In this document: in pieces, positions 15,439-25,185 of the stretch
Numbering within the stretch: position 1 is the first letter of the stretch
How the letters are laid out: each line of letters starts with the position of its first letter
Assembly (NCBI RefSeq): GCF_029318635.1
Contig: NZ_CP119676.1
Span: 124,001-188,000 of the forward strand
Direction of reading: 5' to 3'
From: Varunaivibrio sulfuroxidans
GTDB lineage: Bacteria > Pseudomonadota > Alphaproteobacteria > Rhodospirillales > Magnetovibrionaceae
DNA length: 64,000 bases
The notes under the pieces: model-generated
The model's database searches: none
What the model was told of the DNA's origin: nothing
The model's input: only the letters and a program-made list of their open reading frames with translations
Translations under genes and position numbers: made by a program

Positions 15439-17358
15439 TCACCGGGGCCATTTTCCGGTGGTTTTTCGGCGGGCGGCGATTTTGACCAGGCGGTCTGCGC
15501 GCGTGCCCGCGGGCGGGGTGGCGCGCTGGTGTTCGATCCATGCGATGGCCCGCGCGCGTCCCGGTTCTTGGGCGATGGTGGTGCGTTGCGGGGCGTTGGG
15601 GGTGTTGTCGGCGTAGGCGGCCTTGAAGAAATTGCGCACCGCGTTCGCCGCGAAGGCGTGCAGCGGATGGCTGGCGCTTGCGTAGGCCTTCGACGTCATC
15701 ACCCGTTCGGCCATTGCCTTGTCGAGCAACAGCCCGGCGATCTCGGCCGTTTTCGATGATGGAACGGCCGCGCGGGCGGACGTGGGTGATGACGATGAAG
15801 CCGACGATGAAGGCGACGATGGAACGGGCGAGGCCGACGGAAAAGGCGATCGCGTGGGGATCGGCGAAAATCCCCCTTTCGCGGCGGCTTTTCTGTTTCC
15901 CGGGGCCGTGTTTTTTGGGGCCGTGCTCATTGGCAAGGGGCTTTTCTTGGGGGCCAATATCTTGGGGGCCAAGATCGCCTTCAGGGCGGCGACGCCGTCG
16001 TTGGCGTGGGTGAAGAAGTCCTTGTTTCGGACTTGCTCGGGGATGGTTCCGCGCAGCACACGCGATGCCCGCGCGCGGTCGCCGTAAAGGTGGCTCAACC
16101 GGTCGATGGCGTTTTGCGAAAGATCGGGGCCGGGAGTTTTCGCCGGGGCGGGAACTTTCCCCGCCGTTCCCGGGGCCGCGTCCTTCTCCTTCGTCGCCCC
16201 GTTTCCCGCAGGCTTGTTTTGGGGGGCGGCTTTGTCTTTTGCCGTGACTTTGTTTTGGGCCGTGGGGGCATCTTGGGACGGCGCATTTTGGGCATGGGGC
16301 GCCGTTCCCGCCCCGTCGCCGCTTTGCCCGGGGACGGCTTGTTTGGGCGCGTTTCCCTGGTCCGTCGGTGCGCCTTTCCCCGAATTATGGACGGGGCGGT
16401 TATCGGGAGCGGGATTGCCCGACAGGCCGTCTTTGCCGGCATCTTTTGTCGCCCCGACTTGCGCCTTGGAGGCCGCGCCGGGCGCGTCGGAAGGGTTTTG
16501 TGCGGGACCTTGGGCGGATGGCGCCGCCGGGACGTCGGCCCAAAGATCGCCGGGTTTTTGCCGATACGCCGCGCGGGGCAGATAAATCAGGTCTCCGGCG
16601 CGAATTTTATCGGCGTTCGCAATGTCCGGGTTCGCCGCCATGACGGCGCGTAGGGGAACGTGATAACGCGCGGAAATGGCGCCGAGGGTATCCCCATTGT
16701 TCACCGTAACCGTGCCTTTCTCGTTGGTGTTCATGAAGTGCTTGGCGAAACTGAGGCCACGACTTTCGTCGTGTAGGTATCTGCCGATACGGATAAGGAT
16801 GCGCCCGACGTCCTTCATGTCCCCCGCCCGAAGGGCCTTTTGCAAGGCGTCCCGTTCGCGCCGGACGCTGGCCGGGGACTGATACGTGACCAGCGTCAAA
16901 ATCCCCTGACGTTTGGGACTGAGGGCGGCGAACAGGGGATCGCCGATGATGTTGCGGGTTTGGTCGTAAAAGCGGGCGTAGGACTGTGTGAACAAAGCCT
17001 TGGTCTGCTCCGGGGTCAATTCCGGGCCGCGCAGGGCGGTGATCATCCCATCGAGACGCTTGGTGTCGGCGTTCTCGCCTTTGTTCAATTCGTCGGCGAT
17101 GGCGCGCAGGGTCTTTTTTTGGGAATCGCCCAGCGGGATCTTCGCCGCGCGCATGTCCGCCTCCAAGGTCGGCTTGACCACCCACCGCCCGTCTCGCCCC
17201 AGAACCACGGCGGCGTAACCGATGCCGATGGTCGGAACGTGGCGTCCGTCGTTGTAGTAATTGTGTTTGTCGCGCTCCAAATGGCTGGCCAAGGGGTATA
17301 TTTTATCAAGGGATCGTTGGCCGTAATCATTAATTCGCCGCTTTTTGTGATCAGTCAT
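15439..17358 (-). CDS. T4-type (GH24-like) lysozyme with LysM domain and long low-complexity tail; putative antibacterial effector
   Basis: A 639-residue protein. Residues 20-60 contain Glu28, Asp37 and Thr43 before IGIG, with the same 9- and 6-residue spacing as the Glu11/Asp20/Thr26 triad of T4 lysozyme, so the first 210 residues are probably a muramidase domain. A LysM peptidoglycan-binding domain follows (about 216-261: NNGDTLGAISARYHVP to AGDLIYLP). Residues 270-410 are a Pro/Ala/Gln/Lys-rich linker. The C-terminal 220 residues contain another Ser/Pro-rich stretch and two helical segments I do not recognise. There is no Sec signal. It is the only full-length lysozyme of the four-unit array. 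A strong AAGGAGG precedes the ATG. The effector role is inferred; an endolysin-type cell-wall enzyme is the alternative. Confidence 0.8.
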   Translation of the reverse strand: MTDHKKRRINDYGQRSLDKIYPLASHLERDKHNYYNDGRHVPTIGIGYAAVVLGRDGRWVVKPTLEADMRAAKIPLGDSQKKTLRAIADELNKGENADTKRLDGMITALRGPELTPEQTKALFTQSYARFYDQTRNIIGDPLFAALSPKRQGILTLVTYQSPASVRRERDALQKALRAGDMKDVGRILIRIGRYLHDESRGLSFAKHFMNTNEKGTVTVNNGDTLGAISARYHVPLRAVMAANPDIANADKIRAGDLIYLPRAAYRQKPGDLWADVPAAPSAQGPAQNPSDAPGAASKAQVGATKDAGKDGLSGNPAPDNRPVHNSGKGAPTDQGNAPKQAVPGQSGDGAGTAPHAQNAPSQDAPTAQNKVTAKDKAAPQNKPAGNGATKEKDAAPGTAGKVPAPAKTPGPDLSQNAIDRLSHLYGDRARASRVLRGTIPEQVRNKDFFTHANDGVAALKAILAPKILAPKKSPLPMSTAPKNTAPGNRKAAAKGGFSPIPTRSPFPSASPVPSSPSSSASSSSPTSARAAVPSSKTAEIAGLLLDKAMAERVMTSKAYASASHPLHAFAANAVRNFFKAAYADNTPNAPQRTTIAQEPGRARAIAWIEHQRATPPAGTRADRLVKIAARRKTTGKWPR

Positions 17359-17387: not shown

Positions 17388-17413
17388 AAAAAACAGCGCC
17401 GGGGCGCTGTTTT
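17388..17413 (-). terminator. Hairpin with T-run between partner gene 1 and the lysozyme gene
   Basis: An 11-base perfect stem (aaaacagcgcc/ggcgctgtttt) with a two-base loop and a run of seven T on the minus strand, 45 bases before the lysozyme start. It reads as an intrinsic terminator or attenuator and would limit read-through into the lysozyme. Confidence 0.75.
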
Positions 17414-17447: not shown

Positions 17448-18089
17448 CTATTCGTCGCGCGGGTAGTTGAATAAGTACCGTTTCAACCTCTCCTTATCTC
17501 TATACGGGACGTAAGTATCGAAATTACAATAATAATTTTCTGGTGCTGATTTAGGGAGCCAGTCGTGTTCGATGCGTTTTTCAACATCACCTATGGTTGT
17601 GCATAGACTAACTTGAACCATGCAGGCATTGTCCAAAAACGGTGGAGAATCGTAGCCAATGAAAGCAAACCGTTGCAGCGGATACCCATACTTTTGGTGC
17701 TGCGGCAGGCCGAACAGTTCAAGGTAGGGAACATTATGAGGCCCCTTGCGGATTTTAAAGGGAAACTCTCCGTGTTTGCTGAAGTTAATGTAACCTTTCT
17801 TGATCTCCATAATGCCCAGGGTGGGCATTGTCGCGCGTCCGAAGGGATACCACTTGCCATAAAGTGTTTTGGGGCAGTAGGGCTTGTCGGGCAAGGCCAG
17901 TGGGTCGGGGTTGGCGGCTTGTTTTGATCCCGGGGCGGGGATGACGACCTCGCGCACGGCGAGGGTAATTTTTGCCTCGGCGTCGGCGTCGGCGTCGGCG
18001 GTGGCCAAGGTGGAAAAGAGGACGGCGCTTAGGGCGGCGATAAGGCCTCCGACGACGCGCCCGCGCCGTGACGATGCAAACCTAACCAT
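17448..18089 (-). CDS. Secreted cysteine-containing protein, putative lysozyme-immunity partner (copy 1)
   Basis: A 213-residue protein with basic start MVRFASSRRGR, a hydrophobic core GGLIAALSAVLFSTLATA, and a probable signal-peptidase site after ATA or ADA, so it should reach the periplasm. The mature part has cysteines in KPYCPKTL, LDNAC, VSLC and YYC that could form two disulfides, and a conserved GKWYPF. No family was recognised. This copy has an expanded ADADADAE stretch from extra 6-base repeats. It is directly upstream of the full lysozyme gene in transcription order, the expected place for a cognate inhibitor. Alternatives are an accessory factor for wall binding or a lipocalin-like protein of other function. 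Confidence 0.75.
   Translation of the reverse strand: MVRFASSRRGRVVGGLIAALSAVLFSTLATADADADAEAKITLAVREVVIPAPGSKQAANPDPLALPDKPYCPKTLYGKWYPFGRATMPTLGIMEIKKGYINFSKHGEFPFKIRKGPHNVPYLELFGLPQHQKYGYPLQRFAFIGYDSPPFLDNACMVQVSLCTTIGDVEKRIEHDWLPKSAPENYYCNFDTYVPYRDKERLKRYLFNYPRDE
17974..18003 (+). repeat. Hexanucleotide (gtcggc)n repeat in partner gene 1
   Basis: The copy-1 gene has two more gcgtcg units than the other copies, giving ADADADAE instead of ADAE just after the signal peptide. This is in frame and typical of slipped-strand replication. Confidence 0.75.
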
Positions 18090-18154: not shown

Positions 18155-18183
18155 GGAAAACGGCGCACCTATGGCGCGCCGTT
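18155..18183 (-). terminator. Intrinsic terminator between lysozyme fragment 2 and partner gene 1
   Basis: An 11-bp stem (aacggcgcacc/ggcgcgccgtt, one G-T pair), a three-base loop and a short T-run followed by CC on the minus strand. It separates one tandem unit from the next. Confidence 0.7.
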
Positions 18184-18229
18184 GGGGTCATCTTATACAC
18201 CAAATCGTCGGATCAATAAAGGAAAAAAT

Positions 18230-18712
18230 TCACATAAATGCACATGTCGTCACCCCCCCCTGACGTTCGGGACTGAGGGCGGCGAACAGGGGATCGCCGA
18301 TGATGTTGCGGGTCTGGTCGTAAAAGCGGGCGTAGGACTGAGTGAACAAAGCCTTGGCCTGCTCCGGGGTCAATTCCGGGCCGCGCAGGGCGGTGATCAT
18401 CCCATCGAGACGCTTGGTGTCGGCGTTCTCGCCCTTGTTCAATTCGTCGGCGATGGCGCGCAGGGTCTTTTTTTGGGAATCGCCAAGCGGGATCTTCGCC
18501 GCGCGCATGTTCGCCTCCTAGGTCGGCTTGACCACCCACCGCCCGTCCCGCCCCAAAACCACGGCGGCGTAACCGATGCCGATGGTCGGAACGTGGCGTC
18601 CGTCGTTGTAGTAGGTTTTTTTCTCATACTCTATGGTTCGCGCCAGTGAATATATTTTATCTAGGGATTGTTTGTAGAGGTTAATGATTCTATGAGTTTT
18701 ATCCTCGGTCAT
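18230..18712 (-). pseudogene. Truncated lysozyme copy 2, split by an in-frame amber codon
   Basis: The ATG at 18712 opens MTEDKTHRI and the Glu28/Asp37/Thr43 triad is intact. A TAG at 18518-18520 replaces the leucine codon (TTG) found in the other copies, ending the product at 64 residues. The mutation leaves AGGAGG five bases before an in-frame ATG at 18508, so a second product of 92 residues could be made by re-initiation. The frame then ends at 18230 after the shared truncation point at LSPxRQG, with the short tail GVTTCAFM. Compared with copy 1 it lacks the second half of the lysozyme fold, LysM and the tail. Probably inactive as an enzyme. Confidence 0.8.
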
Positions 18713-18741
18713 TTTTTAGTCCTCCATGTTGTTAAGGGCAC

Positions 18742-18764
18742 AAAAAAACAGCGCCGAGGCGCTG
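18742..18764 (-). terminator. Hairpin with T-run upstream of lysozyme fragment 2
   Basis: A 7-bp stem (cagcgcc/ggcgctg) followed by seven T on the minus strand, equivalent to the hairpin at 17388 but with a shorter stem. Confidence 0.65.
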
Positions 18765-18850
18765 CTGAGTAGTTCATGAGATGCTTTTAATCGTCGAGTG
18801 GTTTTTTTAAGATGGACCGCACGTCCACCTGATAATGCTTGAAGGGTTAT

Positions 18851-19438
18851 TCAAAATTTATTCTTATTATGCGTATAAGTAGCCCCGTCACAATAATATA
18901 TTTTCTTCGTTCCTCCGGGAAGTACATCGTTCTCGATGCGGGCTTCGATGTCTCTTGAAGAGGTGCACAAGCTAACTCGGACGGCGCAGGAGTCCCATAG
19001 GACGGGTATATATGAGATATATACATATCCATCCAGTTCGGCATATCCGTTTTGCCGAGGTGGAGGGAGGTTGAATAGCTCAAGGTAGGGAACATTACGG
19101 GGACCCTTGCGGATTTTGAAGGGAAACTCTCCATGTTTGCTGAAGCGTATGCGGTCTTTCTTAATCTCCATGATTCCAAGGTTGTACATTGCCGCCCGGG
19201 TAAAGGGATACCACTTGCCATAGAGTGTTTTGGGGCAGTAGGGCTTGTCGGGCAAGGCCAGCGGGTCGGGGTTGGCGGCTTGTTTTGATCCCGGGGCGGG
19301 GATGACGACCTCGCGCGCGGCGAGGGTGATTTTTGCCTCGGCGTCGGCGATGGCCAAGGAGGAAAAGAGGACGGCGCTTAGGGCGGCGATAAGGCCTCCG
19401 ACGACGCGCCCGCGCCGTGACGATGCAAACCTAACCAT
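18851..19438 (-). CDS. Secreted cysteine-containing protein, putative immunity partner (copy 2)
   Basis: 195 residues. The signal peptide and the first ~80 residues are almost identical to the other copies, but the second half is the most divergent of the four (NLPPPRQNGYAELDGYVYISY, then GGTKKIYYC) and the C-terminus is shorter, ending HNKNKF instead of YPRDE. The four cysteines are kept. The intact frame despite strong divergence argues for selection on a changed binding surface rather than decay. It stands upstream of the amber-interrupted lysozyme fragment 2. Confidence 0.72.
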   Translation of the reverse strand: MVRFASSRRGRVVGGLIAALSAVLFSSLAIADAEAKITLAAREVVIPAPGSKQAANPDPLALPDKPYCPKTLYGKWYPFTRAAMYNLGIMEIKKDRIRFSKHGEFPFKIRKGPRNVPYLELFNLPPPRQNGYAELDGYVYISYIPVLWDSCAVRVSLCTSSRDIEARIENDVLPGGTKKIYYCDGATYTHNKNKF

Positions 19439-19510
19439 GGCGCGGTTCCCTCATCCTCAATCTCCCTCCCATCACGTTCCCATCTCCCATCTCCCCGCCG
19501 TATCCCGGCA

Positions 19511-19539
19511 GGAAAACGGCGCACCTATGGCGCGCCGTT
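19511..19539 (-). terminator. Intrinsic terminator between lysozyme fragment 3 and partner gene 2
   Basis: The same 11-bp aacggcgcacc/ggcgcgccgtt hairpin with T-run as at 18155, at the unit boundary. Confidence 0.7.
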
Positions 19540-19585
19540 GGGGTCATCTTATACACCAAATCGTCGGATCAATAAAGGAAAAAAT

Positions 19586-20065
19586 TCACATAAATGCATA
19601 TGTCGTCACCCCCCCCTGACGTTTGGGACTGAGGGCGGCGAACAGGGGGTCGCCGATGATGTTGCGGGTTTGGTCGTAAAAGCGGGCGTAGGACTGCGCG
19701 AACAAAGCCTTGGTCTGCTCCGGGGTCAATTCCGGGCCGCGCAGGGCGGAGATCATCCCATCGAGACGCTTGGTGTCGGCGTTCTCGCCTTTGTTCAATT
19801 CGTCGGCGATGGCGCGCAGGGTCTTTTTTTGGGAATCGCCCAGCGGGATCTTCGCCGCGCGCATGTCCGCCTCCAAGGTCGGCTTGACCACCCACCGCCC
19901 GTCTCGCCCCAGAACCACGGCGGCGTAACCGATGCCAATGGTCGGAACGTGGCGTCCGTCGTTGTAGTAGGTTTTTTTCGTACGTGCTCCTTCTATGTTG
20001 TGGGCAATGGCGTAGATATTATCCAAGGATTGTTTGTACGTATCGCTGATTTTGTTGGCGGTCAT
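19586..20065 (-). CDS. Truncated T4-type lysozyme domain (copy 3)
   Basis: 159 residues, ATG at 20065 with a strong GGAGGATACACC leader. The N-terminus (MTANKISDTYKQSLDN) differs from the other copies and has a two-residue insertion between the putative catalytic glutamate (Glu25) and aspartate (Asp36), breaking the GH24 spacing. From YYNDGRHVPTIGIGY onward it is nearly identical to copy 1 until LSPKRQG, where it ends with GVTTYAFM. It lacks the second lobe of the lysozyme fold, so it is unlikely to cleave peptidoglycan. The frame is uninterrupted, so a product is plausible; it may equally be a cassette kept by recombination. Confidence 0.7.
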   Translation of the reverse strand: MTANKISDTYKQSLDNIYAIAHNIEGARTKKTYYNDGRHVPTIGIGYAAVVLGRDGRWVVKPTLEADMRAAKIPLGDSQKKTLRAIADELNKGENADTKRLDGMISALRGPELTPEQTKALFAQSYARFYDQTRNIIGDPLFAALSPKRQGGVTTYAFM

Positions 20066-20092
20066 GGTGTATCCTCCTTGTTGTTAAAGGCA

Positions 20093-20120
20093 TAAAAAAA
20101 CAGCGCCGAAGCGCTGTTTT
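20093..20120 (-). terminator. Hairpin with T-run upstream of lysozyme fragment 3
   Basis: The stem aaaacagcgc/gcgctgtttt with loop cgaa, and a T-run on the minus strand, as in the other units. Confidence 0.7.
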
Positions 20121-20154
20121 CAAACTCTGATAATTCGTCAATTTTTATGCGCTT

Positions 20155-20784
20155 CTATTCGTCGCGCGGGTAGTCGAACAAGTATCTCTTTAGCCTCTCC
20201 TTATCTCTGTAGGGGATATAGCTATCTAGATCGCAGTAGTAATCTTCCGGTACGGATTTAGGGAGCCAGTCGTGTTTGATGCGTTTTTCAACATCACCTA
20301 TGGTTGTACATAGACTAACTTGAACCATGCAGGCATTATCCAAAACCTGGAATGTGCTATATTCGATAAAGGCGAAGCGTCCCAAAGGATACCCATACTT
20401 TTGGTGCTGCGGCAGGCCGAACAGTTCAAGGTAGGGAACATTATGAGGCCCCTTGCGGATTTTAAAGGGAAACTCTCCGTGTTTGCTGAAGTTAATGTAA
20501 CCTTTCTTGATCTCCATAATGCCCAGGGTGGGCATTGTCGCGCGTCCGAAGGGATACCACTTGCCATAAAGTGTTTTGGGGCAGTAGGGCTTGTCGGGCA
20601 AGGCCAGCGGGTCGGGGTTGGCGGCTTGTTTTGATCCCGGGGCGGGGATGACGACCTCGCGCGCGGCGAGGGTGATTTTTGCCTCGGCGTCGGCGGTGGC
20701 CAAGGTGGAAAAGAGGACGGCGCTTAGGGCGGCGATAAGGCCTCCGACGACACGCCCGCGCCGTGACGATGCAAACCTAACCAT
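20155..20784 (-). CDS. Secreted cysteine-containing protein, putative immunity partner (copy 3)
   Basis: 209 residues, with the same signal peptide and cysteine pattern as copy 1. It is almost identical to copy 1 through ELFGLPQHQKYGYP, then switches to the sequence YSTFQVLDNAC shared with copy 4, and ends KRYLFDYPRDE. This patchwork indicates exchange between array members. It precedes truncated lysozyme copy 3 in transcription order. Confidence 0.73.
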   Translation of the reverse strand: MVRFASSRRGRVVGGLIAALSAVLFSTLATADAEAKITLAAREVVIPAPGSKQAANPDPLALPDKPYCPKTLYGKWYPFGRATMPTLGIMEIKKGYINFSKHGEFPFKIRKGPHNVPYLELFGLPQHQKYGYPLGRFAFIEYSTFQVLDNACMVQVSLCTTIGDVEKRIKHDWLPKSVPEDYYCDLDSYIPYRDKERLKRYLFDYPRDE

Positions 20785-20856
20785 GGCGCGGTTCCCTCAT
20801 CCTCAATCTCCCTCCCATCACGTTCCCATCTCCCATCTCCCCGCCGTATCCCGGCA

Positions 20857-20885
20857 GGAAAACGGCGCACCTATGGCGCGCCGTT
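20857..20885 (-). terminator. Intrinsic terminator between lysozyme fragment 4 and partner gene 3
   Basis: The same hairpin as at 18155 at the next unit boundary. Confidence 0.7.
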
Positions 20886-20930
20886 GGGGCATTGTATACA
20901 CCAAATAACCGGATCAATAAAGGAAAAAAT

Positions 20931-21413
20931 TCACATAAATGCACATGTCGTCAACCTCCCCTGACGTTTGGGACTGAGGGCGGCGAGCAGGGGGTCGCCG
21001 ATGATGTTGCGGGTCTGGTCGTAAAAGCGGGCGTAGGACTGAGTGAACAAAGCCTTGGTCTGTTCTGGATTAAGTTCCGGGCCGCGCAGGGCGGTGATCA
21101 TCCCATCGAGACGCTTGGTGTCGGCGTTCTCGCCTTTGTTCAATTCGTCGGCGATGGCGCGCAGGGTCTTTTTTTGGGAATCGCCCAGCGGGATCTTCGC
21201 CGCGCGCATGTCCGCCTCCAAGGTCGGCTTGACCACCCAACGCCCGTCCCGCTCCAAAACCACGGCGGCGTAACCGATGCCGATGGTCGGAACGTGGCGT
21301 CCGTTGTTGTAATAATTGTGTTTGTCGCGCTCCAAATGGCTGGCCAAGGGGTATATTTTATCAAGGGATCGTTGGCCGTAATCATCAATTTGCCGCTTTT
21401 TGTGATCAGTCAT
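20931..21413 (-). CDS. Truncated T4-type lysozyme domain (copy 4), catalytic Asp replaced
   Basis: 160 residues, ATG at 21413. Its N-terminus (MTDHKKRQIDDYGQRSLD) is close to that of the full-length copy 1, including Glu28, but residue 37 is Asn instead of the putative catalytic Asp (YYNNGRH against YYNDGRH), and G54 is Glu. The frame ends after LSPKRQG with a short tail. With the second lobe missing and Asp37 replaced, this copy should be inactive. Confidence 0.7.
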   Translation of the reverse strand: MTDHKKRQIDDYGQRSLDKIYPLASHLERDKHNYYNNGRHVPTIGIGYAAVVLERDGRWVVKPTLEADMRAAKIPLGDSQKKTLRAIADELNKGENADTKRLDGMITALRGPELNPEQTKALFTQSYARFYDQTRNIIGDPLLAALSPKRQGRLTTCAFM

Positions 21414-21441: not shown

Positions 21442-21468
21442 AAAAAAACAGCGCCGGGGCGCTGTTTT
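21442..21468 (-). terminator. Hairpin with T-run upstream of lysozyme fragment 4
   Basis: Identical in sequence to the 17388 hairpin (aaaacagcgcc/ggcgctgtttt), with a T-run on the minus strand. Confidence 0.72.
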
Positions 21469-21502: not shown

Positions 21503-22132
21503 CTATTCGTCGCGCGGGTAGTCGAATAAGTATCTCTTTAGCCTCTCTTTGTCCCTGTAGGGGGCATAGATATCTAAATCGCAGTGGTAATTCTCCGGTG
21601 CGGATGTAGGGAGCCAGTCGTGCTCGATGCGTTTTTCCACATCATCTTTGGAAACACATAGACTGAGTTGGATCGTGCAGGCATTATCCAAAACCTGGAA
21701 TGTGCTATATCCGACGAAAGCGAAGCGCTTCAAAAGGTATCCGCCTCTTTTGTGTTGCTGCAGTTTGAATAGTTCAAAATAGGGTGTTTTGTGTGGTCCC
21801 TTTCGGATTTTAAAGGGAAACTCTCCGAGCTTGCCGAAGCGGATGCGGTTTTTCTTGATCTCCATGATGCCGATAGCGCGCATAGTGCCTCGGGTAAAGG
21901 GATACCACTTGCCATAAAGTGTTTTGGGGCAGTAGGGCTTGTCGGGCAAGGCCAGCGGGTCGGGGTTGGCGGCTTGTTTTGATCCCGGGGCGGGGATGAC
22001 GACCTCGCGCGCGGCGAGGGTGGTTTTTGCCTCGGCGTCGGCGATGGCCAAGGTGGAAAAGAGGACGGCGCTTAGGGCGGCGATAAGGCCTCCGACGACG
22101 CGCCCGCGCCGTGACGATGCAAACCTAACCAT
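21503..22132 (-). CDS. Secreted cysteine-containing protein, putative immunity partner (copy 4)
   Basis: 209 residues; the first gene of the array in transcription order. The signal peptide and N-terminal ~75 residues match the other copies. The middle (FTRGTMRAIGIMEIKKNRIRF, then LFKLQQHKRGGYLL) is distinctive and the end (DKERLKRYLFDYPRDE) is shared with copies 1 and 3. Cysteines are conserved. Any promoter should lie between 22133 and the amrA 3' end, but I see no clear -35/-10 pair. Confidence 0.73.
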   Translation of the reverse strand: MVRFASSRRGRVVGGLIAALSAVLFSTLAIADAEAKTTLAAREVVIPAPGSKQAANPDPLALPDKPYCPKTLYGKWYPFTRGTMRAIGIMEIKKNRIRFGKLGEFPFKIRKGPHKTPYFELFKLQQHKRGGYLLKRFAFVGYSTFQVLDNACTIQLSLCVSKDDVEKRIEHDWLPTSAPENYHCDLDIYAPYRDKERLKRYLFDYPRDE

Positions 22133-22204
22133 GGCGCGGTTCCCTCATCCTCAATCTCCCTCCCATCACGTTCCCATCTCCCATCTCCCCGCCGTATCCC
22201 GGCA

Positions 22205-22233
22205 GGAAAACGGCGCACCTATGGCGCGCCGTT
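22205..22233 (-). terminator. Hairpin at the upstream edge of the array
   Basis: The same aacggcgcacc/ggcgcgccgtt hairpin, here between the AMMECR1-type gene and partner gene 4, so the array appears insulated from upstream transcription. Confidence 0.65.
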
Positions 22234-22331
22234 GGGGCATTGTATACACCAAATAACCGGCCGATGAAGGAAAAAATTCATACAAACGTGCGCTGCTATC
22301 TTGCCGGTCTATCCCGGGCGCGTGGTGTGGG

Positions 22332-22955
22332 TTATTCCCGGTCGGCAATGGACGTATTTCCGGAAATGCCATGGGCGCTGAACCGCCACGCCCGAGTATC
22401 GGGGGGCAAGTCATCCTCGGACATCCCGGCTTTCGCCTTGAGATGGGATAAAAACAGATTGGGCGTCGGCAATTGTTCCCAGACCTGAGGAAGGAACAAA
22501 GCGCGATGGACGCCATCGTCGATGATCAGACCGTCGATTTGCGGGCGCAGCTGCGTCAGTAAGTCGCGTTCGCCATGAAAAGTCATCTCCCGAGAGGGGC
22601 TGAGCAGCGACAGGGAAATTTCCATGTCCGCCATTTCGGCGCGCGTCATGGGGAGGAAACGCGTATCGCGAAAGGCGGCGGAGAAGGCGTTGTCGGCGAT
22701 GTCTTGCACGAGAGGCCTGAAGGCCGTGCTGCTACCGATGCATCCGCGCAATTGGCCTTTCTTTTTCAGGGTGACGAACACCGCACCCGGCTCGGCGAGC
22801 AGGGGGGGATAGGCCGTAGGATCGACCGCCATCGCCACGCCATGGTCCAGACCATAGGCTATGGCGCGTGCAGCCAAGGCGATCAGTGTATCGCCATATT
22901 CCTGTGCGATACGCGCCATATCCCGGTCCTGCTCCGTATCCGTCGTGGTTGTCAT
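22332..22955 (-). CDS. amrA: AmmeMemoRadiSam system protein A (AMMECR1 domain)
   Basis: A 207-residue AMMECR1-domain protein with the signatures GAVFVTLKKKGQLRGCIG and RDTRFLPMTRAEM, and WEQLPTPNLFLSHLKAKAGM near the end. The biochemical role of bacterial AMMECR1 proteins is not settled; they co-occur with MEMO and a radical-SAM enzyme, as here. I chose ATG 22955 (MTTTTDTEQD) because the frame upstream overlaps the MEMO gene without similarity. The MEMO gene ends 29 bases before it, so the two are probably one transcript. Confidence 0.9.
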   Translation of the reverse strand: MTTTTDTEQDRDMARIAQEYGDTLIALAARAIAYGLDHGVAMAVDPTAYPPLLAEPGAVFVTLKKKGQLRGCIGSSTAFRPLVQDIADNAFSAAFRDTRFLPMTRAEMADMEISLSLLSPSREMTFHGERDLLTQLRPQIDGLIIDDGVHRALFLPQVWEQLPTPNLFLSHLKAKAGMSEDDLPPDTRAWRFSAHGISGNTSIADRE

Positions 22956-22983
22956 TTTTACCCGACCTGACGGTTGTCCGCCG

Positions 22984-23850
22984 TCAGGTTTTTGCGCCGT
23001 TGGTGTCTTCTTCATAAAAATGCCATGCGCCATAGCCGACGACGGCATCTTTGTCGCCGGAGGTATCGCCGGAATTGCAAAGATCCACGGTTTCGATCCG
23101 CATTCGCCGCACCCGGGCGAGACCGAGAAGGCCGCGCATAGCGACGCGCCCGCATGCACGTTCGCGTCCGATCAAGGCCGGGTCCATGGCCTCGATGATG
23201 CGTTGTGTCTGGGTATCCATGTTCTTGGCTTCGGTGTAGGGGAGGTGATGGCTGAGATCGGAGCTGATCACGATCAAGGTTTCCCGTCCGCCCCAAAGCG
23301 CGGCGAGAACCTCGGAGATGTCATCGGTGGTGGCGTCGCCGACGGCCAGCGCCACCAGGGTGAATTTATCAAGCACTTTTTGTAGAAAGGGCAGTTGAAC
23401 CTCGATGCTGTGTTCAAGGCTATGGGCGGCGTCGAGCTCCTGGACTTGGGGCAGCTTGGAGAGAATCTCCGTGCTTTTCGCATCGCAAGGGATTTGACCA
23501 AAAGGGGTGACGAAGGCTGCGGCGGAACTCAGCGCCAGCCCCTTTAAGGGATAGTGGTGGGCAGGACCTAAAATCACCACCCGCTTAATTCGATCGCGGG
23601 CGGCGGCGAGGGATGCGTAGGCCCTCGCGGCGACGATGCCGCTGTAGGCGTATCCCGCGTGAGGTGCGATGATCGCCTTGGGAACGGCGGCGTTGGGCGT
23701 GATGTCGGGAGACGTGACGTCGGGAGGTGAGGGTAGGGATGAGCGCTCCGCCCGGGCGACACCCAGCAACGTCTCGACCATACTGCTTAGCGCAGCGGGA
23801 TCGGCCGGATAAAACGTGCCCGCGACGGCGGATTGGCGTAAACTGTTCAT
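22984..23850 (-). CDS. amrB: AmmeMemoRadiSam system protein B (MEMO-like)
   Basis: A 288-residue MEMO1-family protein, a fold related to class III extradiol dioxygenases. It begins RQSAVAGTFYPADPAAL, carries IIAPHAGYAYSGIVAARAY and VVILGPAHHYPLKG with candidate metal-ligand histidines, and ends GDKDAVVGYGAWHFYE. The human homologue has been reported as a copper-binding redox protein; the bacterial role is unknown. It is divergent from the radical-SAM gene across a palindromic repeat and is followed by the AMMECR1 gene. Confidence 0.92.
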   Translation of the reverse strand: MNSLRQSAVAGTFYPADPAALSSMVETLLGVARAERSSLPSPPDVTSPDITPNAAVPKAIIAPHAGYAYSGIVAARAYASLAAARDRIKRVVILGPAHHYPLKGLALSSAAAFVTPFGQIPCDAKSTEILSKLPQVQELDAAHSLEHSIEVQLPFLQKVLDKFTLVALAVGDATTDDISEVLAALWGGRETLIVISSDLSHHLPYTEAKNMDTQTQRIIEAMDPALIGRERACGRVAMRGLLGLARVRRMRIETVDLCNSGDTSGDKDAVVGYGAWHFYEEDTNGAKT

Positions 23851-23914
23851 CGCCGGAGTGTATGCCGATTTTGAACTGTTCGCAATTTTAACGTGCGAAA
23901 TATCAATGCCGGTT

Positions 23915-23972
23915 TAGGGTTAGGACCTATTCATCTGATGCGTCTGGCGGAGGTGAATAGGTCCTAACCCTA
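23915..23972. repeat. REP-like palindrome between amrB and amrS
   Basis: A 58-bp near-perfect inverted repeat with a 19-base arm starting tagggttaggacctattca and loop containing gatgcgtctggcgg. The same loop and closely related arms occur at 57588 and 41647, so it belongs to a dispersed family. Confidence 0.85.
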
Positions 23973-24072
23973 GCTCGGTTGCGGTCATTGTTTTTTGTCG
24001 ATCTTCCTATCGGGGTCCCCGGTGTCGAATGGTCCCGTTGAAGACCTTCAACGTCGAAGGGAGGCTGCCGCC

Positions 24073-25185
24073 ATGGCGCTTCATTCCACGCAAATCTCGC
24101 CGGAAAATTTTCCTACCCATTTCTACCACGTCTTGGACGACGGTCGGGTGCAGTGCGACGTCTGTCCCCGCGAATGCAAGCTTCACGAAGGCCAGCGCGG
24201 GCTATGTTTCGTACGCGCATGCAAAGACGGCGCCGTGGTATTGACCAGCTATGGGCGAGCGAGCGGCTTTTGCATCGATCCAATCGAAAAAAAACCGCTC
24301 CATCACTTTCTGCCGGGCGCCCCGGTGTTGTCGTTCGGCACCGCCGGATGCAATTTGGCCTGTAAATTCTGTCAGAACTGGGACATCAGCAAATCGCGTC
24401 AATTCGATACCCTGAGCGATATCGCCCAGCCCGAGGATATCGCCCTGGCGGCGCAAAAACACGATTGCCGCGCCGTCGCCTATACCTACAACGATCCAAT
24501 CATTTTTTTGGAGTACGCGATCGATGTCGCGGCCGCGTGCGCCAAACTTGAGATCAAGAACGTCGCGGTCAGCGCGGGGTATGTCAACGCCGGGGCGCGC
24601 GCCGTGTTTTTCGGTGCGATGGATGCGGTGAATATCGATCTGAAAAGTTTCAACGACGATTTTTATCATCGTTTGTGTGGAGGAACGCTGGCCCCGGTTT
24701 TGGATACCCTGATTTATCTAAAACATGAAACAGACGCTTGGCTTGAGCTGACGACTCTGCTGATCCCCGGCGAAAACGACAGCCCTGAGGAAATCGACGC
24801 CATGACCCGGTGGGTCGTACGCGAGTTGGGGCCGGATGTCCCGATGCACTTTTCGGCTTTCCATCCGGCCTGGAAAATGGCCGACCTTCCCGCCACCGAT
24901 CCGTCCGTGGTGCGCCGGGCGCGCGATATTGCGATTAAAAACGGTGTGCGTTACGCCTATTGCGGAAACGTGCATGACGATCGGGGGGAAAACACCTATT
25001 GTCATCGGTGCGACCATCTTTTGATCGCCCGCTGGGGGTATGAGTTGAGCCGGTGGGGACTCGATACCCAGGGGCGCTGCGCCGCGTGCGGGACGCCGTG
25101 CGCCGGGGTGTTCGAGAAAGAGCCGGGGCGCTGGGGGAATCGCCGATTGCCCGTGCGTATCGCGGTGCGGGGCCGAACCGCGTGA
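24073..25185 (+). CDS. amrS: AmmeMemoRadiSam system radical SAM enzyme
   Basis: A 370-residue radical-SAM protein. The cluster motif is C93-x3-C97-x2-C100 in AGCNLACKFCQNW. An N-terminal Cys-rich segment (CDVCPRECKLHEGQRGLC) and C-terminal cysteines (CGNVH, YCHRCD, RCAACGTPC) could hold further metal. The relation to pyruvate-formate-lyase activases suggests glycyl-radical-type chemistry, but the substrate is unknown. The ATG at 24073 has GGGAGG upstream; a TTG at 23995 in the same frame would start inside the intergenic region. It is divergent from the MEMO and AMMECR1 genes, completing the three-gene set. Confidence 0.93.
   Translation: MALHSTQISPENFPTHFYHVLDDGRVQCDVCPRECKLHEGQRGLCFVRACKDGAVVLTSYGRASGFCIDPIEKKPLHHFLPGAPVLSFGTAGCNLACKFCQNWDISKSRQFDTLSDIAQPEDIALAAQKHDCRAVAYTYNDPIIFLEYAIDVAAACAKLEIKNVAVSAGYVNAGARAVFFGAMDAVNIDLKSFNDDFYHRLCGGTLAPVLDTLIYLKHETDAWLELTTLLIPGENDSPEEIDAMTRWVVRELGPDVPMHFSAFHPAWKMADLPATDPSVVRRARDIAIKNGVRYAYCGNVHDDRGENTYCHRCDHLLIARWGYELSRWGLDTQGRCAACGTPCAGVFEKEPGRWGNRRLPVRIAVRGRTA

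What the first reader, a model, noticed from the sequence alone, without database searches (positions are those of the whole stretch)
18230..21413. All three truncated lysozymes end at the same breakpoint
In copies 2, 3 and 4 homology to the full gene stops at the same DNA position (cccctgacg; after LSPxRQG), and the sequence beyond it resembles the array's upstream flank near 22260-22290. One explanation is a first duplication between that flank and the inside of the lysozyme gene, then spread by unequal crossing-over. The broken units would then be by-products or stored cassettes that can recombine with the complete gene through the shared ~110-codon region.
Basis: seen in the sequence. Interest (0 to 1): 0.8.

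Follow-up and report, generated by a model that had tools for sequence, protein, structure and literature searches.

The report
Inhibitor array with truncated lysozyme remnants
A bacterium carries two distant clusters of repeated gene pairs, each pair an intact secreted protein (probably a lysozyme blocker) next to a lysozyme gene, and in all but one pair per cluster the lysozyme is cut off at exactly the same base, which looks like a mirror-image version of the known 'orphan toxin-immunity' arrays bacteria use in warfare with their kin.

Summary
A second array 765 kb away holds two more truncated copies with the same break and 65-base continuation, plus its own full-length gene: five truncated, two complete. 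The sequence past the break is the next unit's leader. Each unit is leader, intact secreted four-cysteine protein (putative immunity), terminator-like hairpin, T4-type (GH24) lysozyme. The full gene adds LysM and a C-terminal region shared with other large proteins. Each unit has two near-identical arms (first ~60 immunity codons; lysozyme codons 38-152) around a divergent core (rest of the immunity gene, hairpin, first ~37 lysozyme codons with the catalytic Glu). Synonymous divergence jumps from 0-0.15 to 0.35-saturated at the arms, so cores were exchanged by homologous recombination; one unit is an inter-array chimera. In relatives every intact lysozyme with readable upstream sequence has an immunity gene before it, while immunity genes persist beside deleted, frameshifted or missing lysozymes. 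Best reading: orphan toxin-immunity array, geometrically mirrored from Rhs/CDI. One founding break then spread is supported; duplication versus deletion is unresolved. Delivery, immunity and switching are untested.

The parts
22133..22286 (-). leader of unit A4, array start (contains GC hairpin 22207-22233); about 45 bp after the AMMECR1-type gene stop
   Evidence: homologous leaders precede all seven units
21503..22132 (-). unit A4: secreted four-Cys protein, putative immunity/lysozyme inhibitor (209 aa)
   Evidence: ORF; invariant Cys and Trp in relatives
21445..21468 (-). unit A4: terminator-like hairpin between inhibitor and lysozyme genes
   Evidence: z -4.2; present in all seven units and several relatives
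20931..21413 (-). unit A4: truncated lysozyme (160 aa; catalytic Asp37 replaced by Asn)
20884..20949 (-). A4/A3 junction: break after TGACG (20949) then leader of unit A3
20155..20784 (-). unit A3: putative immunity protein (209 aa)
20097..20120 (-). unit A3: terminator-like hairpin
   Evidence: z -4.3
19586..20065 (-). unit A3: truncated lysozyme (159 aa)
19538..19604 (-). A3/A2 junction, same break (19604) and next leader
18851..19438 (-). unit A2: putative immunity protein (195 aa), intact
18745..18766 (-). unit A2: terminator-like hairpin
18230..18712 (-). unit A2: truncated lysozyme, also interrupted by TAG at 18518-18520
18182..18248 (-). A2/A1 junction, same break (18248) and leader of unit A1
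17448..18089 (-). unit A1: putative immunity protein (213 aa)
17390..17413 (-). unit A1: terminator-like hairpin
15439..17358 (-). unit A1: complete lysozyme (639 aa): T4-lysozyme domain ~10-210, LysM 218-261, low-complexity linker, C-terminal region ~487-639 shared with other large proteins
16894..16911 (-). position in the complete gene that corresponds to the shared break (CGTCAGGGGATTTTGACG)

Best explanation
This is an orphan toxin-immunity array. Each unit once encoded a pair: a secreted, probably disulfide-bonded immunity protein and, after a terminator-like hairpin that would keep its expression lower, a T4-type lysozyme toxin with LysM and a C-terminal trafficking or anchoring region. 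One rearrangement joined the inside of the lysozyme gene to the leader of the next unit, leaving an immunity gene with a toxin stub. Unequal crossing-over multiplied that stub unit, and homologous recombination through the two conserved arms replaced the cores with divergent alleles, also between two unlinked arrays. Immunity genes are kept (protection against sibling lineages with the matching lysozyme) while the stubs decay. Only the last unit of each array has a complete lysozyme. Because the toxin's variable part is N-terminal and its immunity gene lies upstream, the orphans sit upstream of the complete gene, the mirror image of Rhs/CDI. Shown: architecture, shared break, recombination arms and mosaic structure, T4-lysozyme family, conserved pairing, intact immunity frames. 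Inferred: lysozyme activity and killing, immunity function, specificity of pairs, selection for retention.
For: One break in five copies in two arrays 765 kb apart. Synonymous divergence: first ~60 immunity codons 0-0.06, lysozyme core 0.04-0.15, immunity remainder 0.35 to saturated; lysozyme N-terminus mostly about 1.9 or saturated but 0 among A1, A4 and B3; Fisher p 1e-18 to 1e-88 for arms versus core in all 21 unit pairs. B3 is a chimera: B-type immunity gene, A3-identical hairpin/spacer (0/39), then A4-identical lysozyme 5' end (0 mismatches over ~150 nt). All seven immunity frames intact; five lysozymes truncated, one of them with a stop codon, two with catalytic Asp37 to Asn, one split from its partner by an IS630-like insertion. 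T4-lysozyme family: profile hits T4 lysozyme at about 1e-9, model pLDDT 88.9, best Z 12.9 over 159 residues, and E28/D37/T43 fall on T4 E11/D20/T26 with an offset of 17. In relatives an immunity homologue precedes every intact lysozyme whose upstream is readable, while immunity genes persist beside an internally deleted lysozyme and a stub (Rhodospirillaceae LM-1, L043, L044), a frameshifted one (L046), or as a tandem pair (L050). dN/dS below 1 in the immunity core.
Against: No killing, inhibition or binding data exist. The immunity gene matches no known inhibitor family, and its model (pLDDT 70.8) shows only a weak lipocalin/ZinT-like match (Z about 6). No T6SS or VirB4-type T4SS found in the genome or the relatives tested, so delivery is unknown. 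The immunity-lysozyme allele match is not strict: A1 and A3 have similar immunity genes but different lysozyme N-termini. Low dN/dS may predate the loss of the toxins. No second strain was available to compare unit number.
Confidence: 0.66

Rival explanations
1. By-product: tandem duplication and gene conversion amplified a defective unit; the stubs and extra immunity genes do nothing.
For: Homogenised arms and unequal unit numbers (4 and 3) are what neutral concerted evolution gives; stubs are decaying.
Against: Cores differ up to synonymous saturation, so they were imported or kept as distinct alleles, not simply copied; seven of seven immunity frames intact with dN/dS below 1; repeated loss of lysozyme but not of immunity gene in relatives.
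Confidence: 0.15
2. House-keeping autolysin with its own inhibitor: the pair remodels or lyses the producer's wall and extra inhibitor genes tune dosage.
For: LysM plus muramidase with a secreted inhibitor fits wall remodelling; the hairpin would keep inhibitor above enzyme; array A and several relative loci lie among house-keeping genes.
Against: Patchy distribution (9 of 60 relatives with any match) and a hypervariable core spanning both genes are unlike a house-keeping enzyme; dosage would not need divergent inhibitor alleles.
Confidence: 0.13
3. Prophage endolysin with an antilysin-like partner, left by an old phage.
For: T4-lysozyme fold; T4 itself has a lysozyme-binding periplasmic protein (spackle, structure 6xc0 in the hit lists); a sheath-like fragment borders array B.
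Against: No relative in viral contigs or phage records apart from LysM or plasmids; no phage genes at array A; long C-terminal region unlike an endolysin.
Confidence: 0.06

Closest known systems
Orphan toxin-immunity modules of Rhs and CDI loci (PMC3967940, PMC4927057)
   Same: One complete toxin gene plus fragments that keep a stretch of constant sequence and an intact linked immunity gene; the constant stretch (522 bp at 95% in Salmonella rhs; about 342 nt at 95-99% here) allows fusion to the complete gene.
   Different: Here toxin variability is N-terminal, the immunity gene is upstream, orphans lie upstream, stubs keep start codon and ribosome site and lack the 3' end, all orphans share one break, and two unlinked arrays exchange sequence. 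No Rhs or CdiA protein.
Vibrio cholerae T6SS immunity gene arrays (Kirchberger 2017, PMC5361080)
   Same: Rows of retained immunity genes with effector remnants, attributed to displacement of effectors and protection against kin.
   Different: There orphans are 3' of the effector, without specific sites, by addition of non-homologous modules; here there is a single common junction and homologous arms, and no T6SS was found.
Pesticin and its periplasmic immunity protein
   Same: A T4-lysozyme-fold bacteriocin (pesticin structures in the hit list) neutralised in the producer's periplasm (the latter from general knowledge).
   Different: Pesticin has the lysozyme domain at the C-terminus with receptor-binding parts in front; single pair, no array.

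Membership tests
T4-type lysozyme (GH24) | T4-lysozyme fold and homologous sequence | tested here: met
   Profile hits T4 lysozyme at about 1e-9; model Z 12.9, rmsd 3.0, 159 aligned; Pfam PF00959 is not reported for the window protein
T4-type lysozyme (GH24) | catalytic Glu/Asp/Thr (T4 E11, D20, T26) | tested here: met
   E28, D37, T43 in both complete genes and nearly all relatives; D37 is Asn in stubs A4 and B3
T4-type lysozyme (GH24) | muramidase activity | not testable with these tools
   needs purified protein
Rhs/CDI orphan toxin-immunity modules | orphan fragments keep constant-region homology and an intact linked immunity gene | tested here: met
   that the partner is an immunity gene is inferred
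Rhs/CDI orphan toxin-immunity modules | toxin part at the C-terminus, immunity gene and orphans downstream | tested here: not met
   order is the reverse in both arrays and in the relatives the partner gene is upstream
T6SS immunity gene arrays | type VI secretion machinery in the genome | tested here: not met
   VipB/TssC absent from own genome and eight relatives; a control genome rang
T4SS-delivered bacterial killing effectors | VirB4-type ATPase in the genome | tested here: not met
   PF03135 absent in nine genomes; a control rang
eCIS or contractile-tail cargo | contractile sheath in producers | tested here: inconclusive
   one sheath gene in own genome at 3.02 Mb but none in six relatives tested, four of which carry the pair with a lysozyme reaching LysM; tube family search uninformative
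Known lysozyme inhibitors (Ivy, MliC, PliI) | sequence or fold match of the immunity protein | tested here: inconclusive
   no Pfam match; weak fold matches only
Polymorphic toxins | constant trafficking region joined to varying toxin domains | tested here: inconclusive
   C-terminal region recurs at 43% and 33% identity in proteins with different N-terminal parts; its role is unknown

The most novel reading that the evidence does not exclude
A switchable lysozyme-immunity cassette system: two unlinked arrays store divergent immunity/lysozyme-head cassettes between standard recombination arms (immunity 5' end, hairpin/ribosome site, lysozyme core), and crossing-over with the single complete gene changes which lysozyme specificity is deployed, while orphan immunity genes guard against lineages that have not switched; an N-terminal-variable, upstream-lying counterpart of Rhs switching.
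Probability: 0.27. Interest if true: 0.76.

Novelty: new variant of a known kind. Interest (0 to 1): 0.56.

Why it matters
Orphan arrays are known from Rhs, CDI and T6SS loci, where toxin variation is C-terminal and remnants trail downstream. Here the same outcome appears with reversed polarity, a cell-wall hydrolase as toxin, one founding junction traceable in two unlinked arrays, and no T6SS or VirB4-type T4SS detected. That suggests orphan arrays follow from the logic of linked toxin-immunity alleles with conserved arms rather than from a particular secretion system, and it gives a compact natural system to test whether retained immunity genes protect against kin. It also brings to notice an uncharacterised secreted protein family that probably inhibits T4-type lysozymes.

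Tried and rejected
Duplication versus deletion as founding event: tested spacer against flank (not significant); left open. Lysozyme remnant in the flank of array A: none; in the flank of array B a 13-mer with one mismatch to the lysozyme end (3 of 2000 shuffles), hinting at a lost fourth unit. Phage origin: no hits except LysM. Related loci with the single full-length protein: none confirmed in genome contigs; the alignment query worked. A class-wide search with the LysM-containing profile returned mostly LysM-only hits and says little about the pair. Promoter scan found no excess. PF06841 search was uninformative because no control rang. Foldseek for the immunity model: nothing significant. 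A literature search for an upstream-immunity, N-terminal-toxin array found nothing, a narrow search only.

Full report
Observation. The window holds, on the minus strand, four head-to-tail units of about 1.35 kb. Upstream to downstream they are A4, A3, A2 and A1. Each has a leader, a secreted protein of 195-213 aa, a hairpin followed by T's, and a lysozyme gene. In A4, A3 and A2 the lysozyme stops being homologous to the complete gene of A1 at one position. What follows is the next unit's leader, which also explains the likeness to 22260-22290. A2 is in addition cut by a TAG at 18518-18520.

A second array. The genome (3.07 Mb, one contig) has another array at 905-912 kb with three units. B3 carries an IS630-like insertion between its two genes; B2 has a truncated lysozyme; B1 has a complete lysozyme of 637 aa. 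B3 and B2 end at the same break with the same continuation. Homology between the two loci covers the module from the leader to a few bases after the stop codon of the complete gene, whose 3' 1.83 kb is 98.7% identical. So five truncated copies in two places descend from one junction.

Anatomy of a unit. Aligning all seven units shows near-identical arms and a divergent core. The first ~60 immunity codons differ at 0-6% of synonymous sites between any two units, and lysozyme codons 38-152 have dS 0.04-0.15. The rest of the immunity gene has dS 0.35 to saturation; the first ~37 lysozyme codons mostly differ at dS about 1.9 or saturation, except that A1, A4 and B3 share one head type. Such jumps cannot come from selection on protein sequence alone, since synonymous sites are involved; they mark recombination. 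B3 shows an exchange between arrays: its immunity gene is of B type, its hairpin and spacer match A3 without a mismatch, and its lysozyme head matches A4 without a mismatch. The longest exact runs in the arms are 82-182 nt (immunity) and 50-186 nt (lysozyme core), which by general knowledge is ample for RecA-dependent recombination. The hairpin between the two genes folds well in all units (z -2.4 to -5.6) and has counterparts in several relatives.

The proteins. The complete protein has LysM at 218-261. Its N-terminal domain is a T4-type lysozyme by profile (about 1e-9) and by model (pLDDT 88.9; Z 12.9). The match to T4 lysozyme starts at model residue 18, so E28, D37 and T43 lie on T4 E11, D20 and T26, the known catalytic residues. 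The truncated copies end within the helix that begins at 148 and lack the last third of the domain, so they are very probably inactive; A4 and B3 also carry Asn at the Asp37 position. The C-terminal region recurs in large proteins of two relatives with different N-terminal parts (43% and 33% identity), as expected of a trafficking or anchoring region, though this is not shown. The partner protein has a signal-like N-terminus and four invariant cysteines, matches no Pfam family, and its model suggests a beta-barrel with only weak matches.

Relatives. Homologous pairs exist in Rhodospirillales and neighbours. In every locus with an intact lysozyme and readable upstream sequence the partner gene lies directly before it. 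The reverse does not hold: in Rhodospirillaceae LM-1 one pair has an internally deleted lysozyme (L043 against L042) and one only a stub of about a dozen codons (L044); L046 has a frameshifted lysozyme (a draft assembly, so an error is possible); L050 has two partner genes in a row. This asymmetry, lysozyme never without partner and partner often without lysozyme, is what an immunity gene would show. No close phage or plasmid relatives were found.

Interpretation. The pattern is best read as an orphan toxin-immunity array. Published parallels are the Rhs and CDI orphans, where a fragment with 522 bp of 95% identity recombined with the main rhs gene in evolved Salmonella (PMC3967940; see also PMC4927057), and the T6SS immunity arrays of Vibrio cholerae (PMC5361080). 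The present case differs in polarity, in the enzyme, in its single shared junction, in having two arrays that exchange sequence, and in the absence of T6SS and of a VirB4-type T4SS. The founding event may have been a duplication into the flank or a deletion between two TGACG words (inside the gene and after its stop); the present data do not decide, and the spacer's likeness to the flank is not significant. The 'stored cassette' idea is feasible from the arms but undemonstrated.

Limits. Nothing here shows activity, inhibition, delivery or switching. No second strain of the organism was available. Allele pairing between immunity and lysozyme is imperfect (A1 and A3 have similar immunity genes but different lysozyme heads), as mosaic recombination at the hairpin would produce.

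Noticed in passing
L007:10350-11405 (genome about 906.3-907.4 kb): IS630-like element (two reading frames, at a CTAG target) inserted between the immunity gene and the truncated lysozyme of unit B3.
   Followed up: partly
L007:7687-9212: Next to array B, a gene whose start reads like a contractile-tail sheath protein, with an internal direct duplication of roughly 130 bp; it does not reach the Pfam sheath model. A real sheath gene lies at genome 3.024 Mb.
   Followed up: partly
L007:9515-9555: Flank of array B holds CCGCCCTCACTCC, one mismatch from the lysozyme end, just before the leader: possible trace of a lost fourth unit (3 of 2000 shuffles).
   Followed up: partly
window 22332-25185: AMMECR1-like, Memo-like and AmmeMemoRadiSam-like radical-SAM genes adjoin array A; a 22-bp, 95% inverted repeat lies at 23915-23972 between the Memo-like and radical-SAM genes.
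   Followed up: no
L040:6836-8209: In relative G002 a TolC-like outer-membrane gene lies about 1 kb from the immunity homologue, a possible hint at type I secretion.
   Followed up: no
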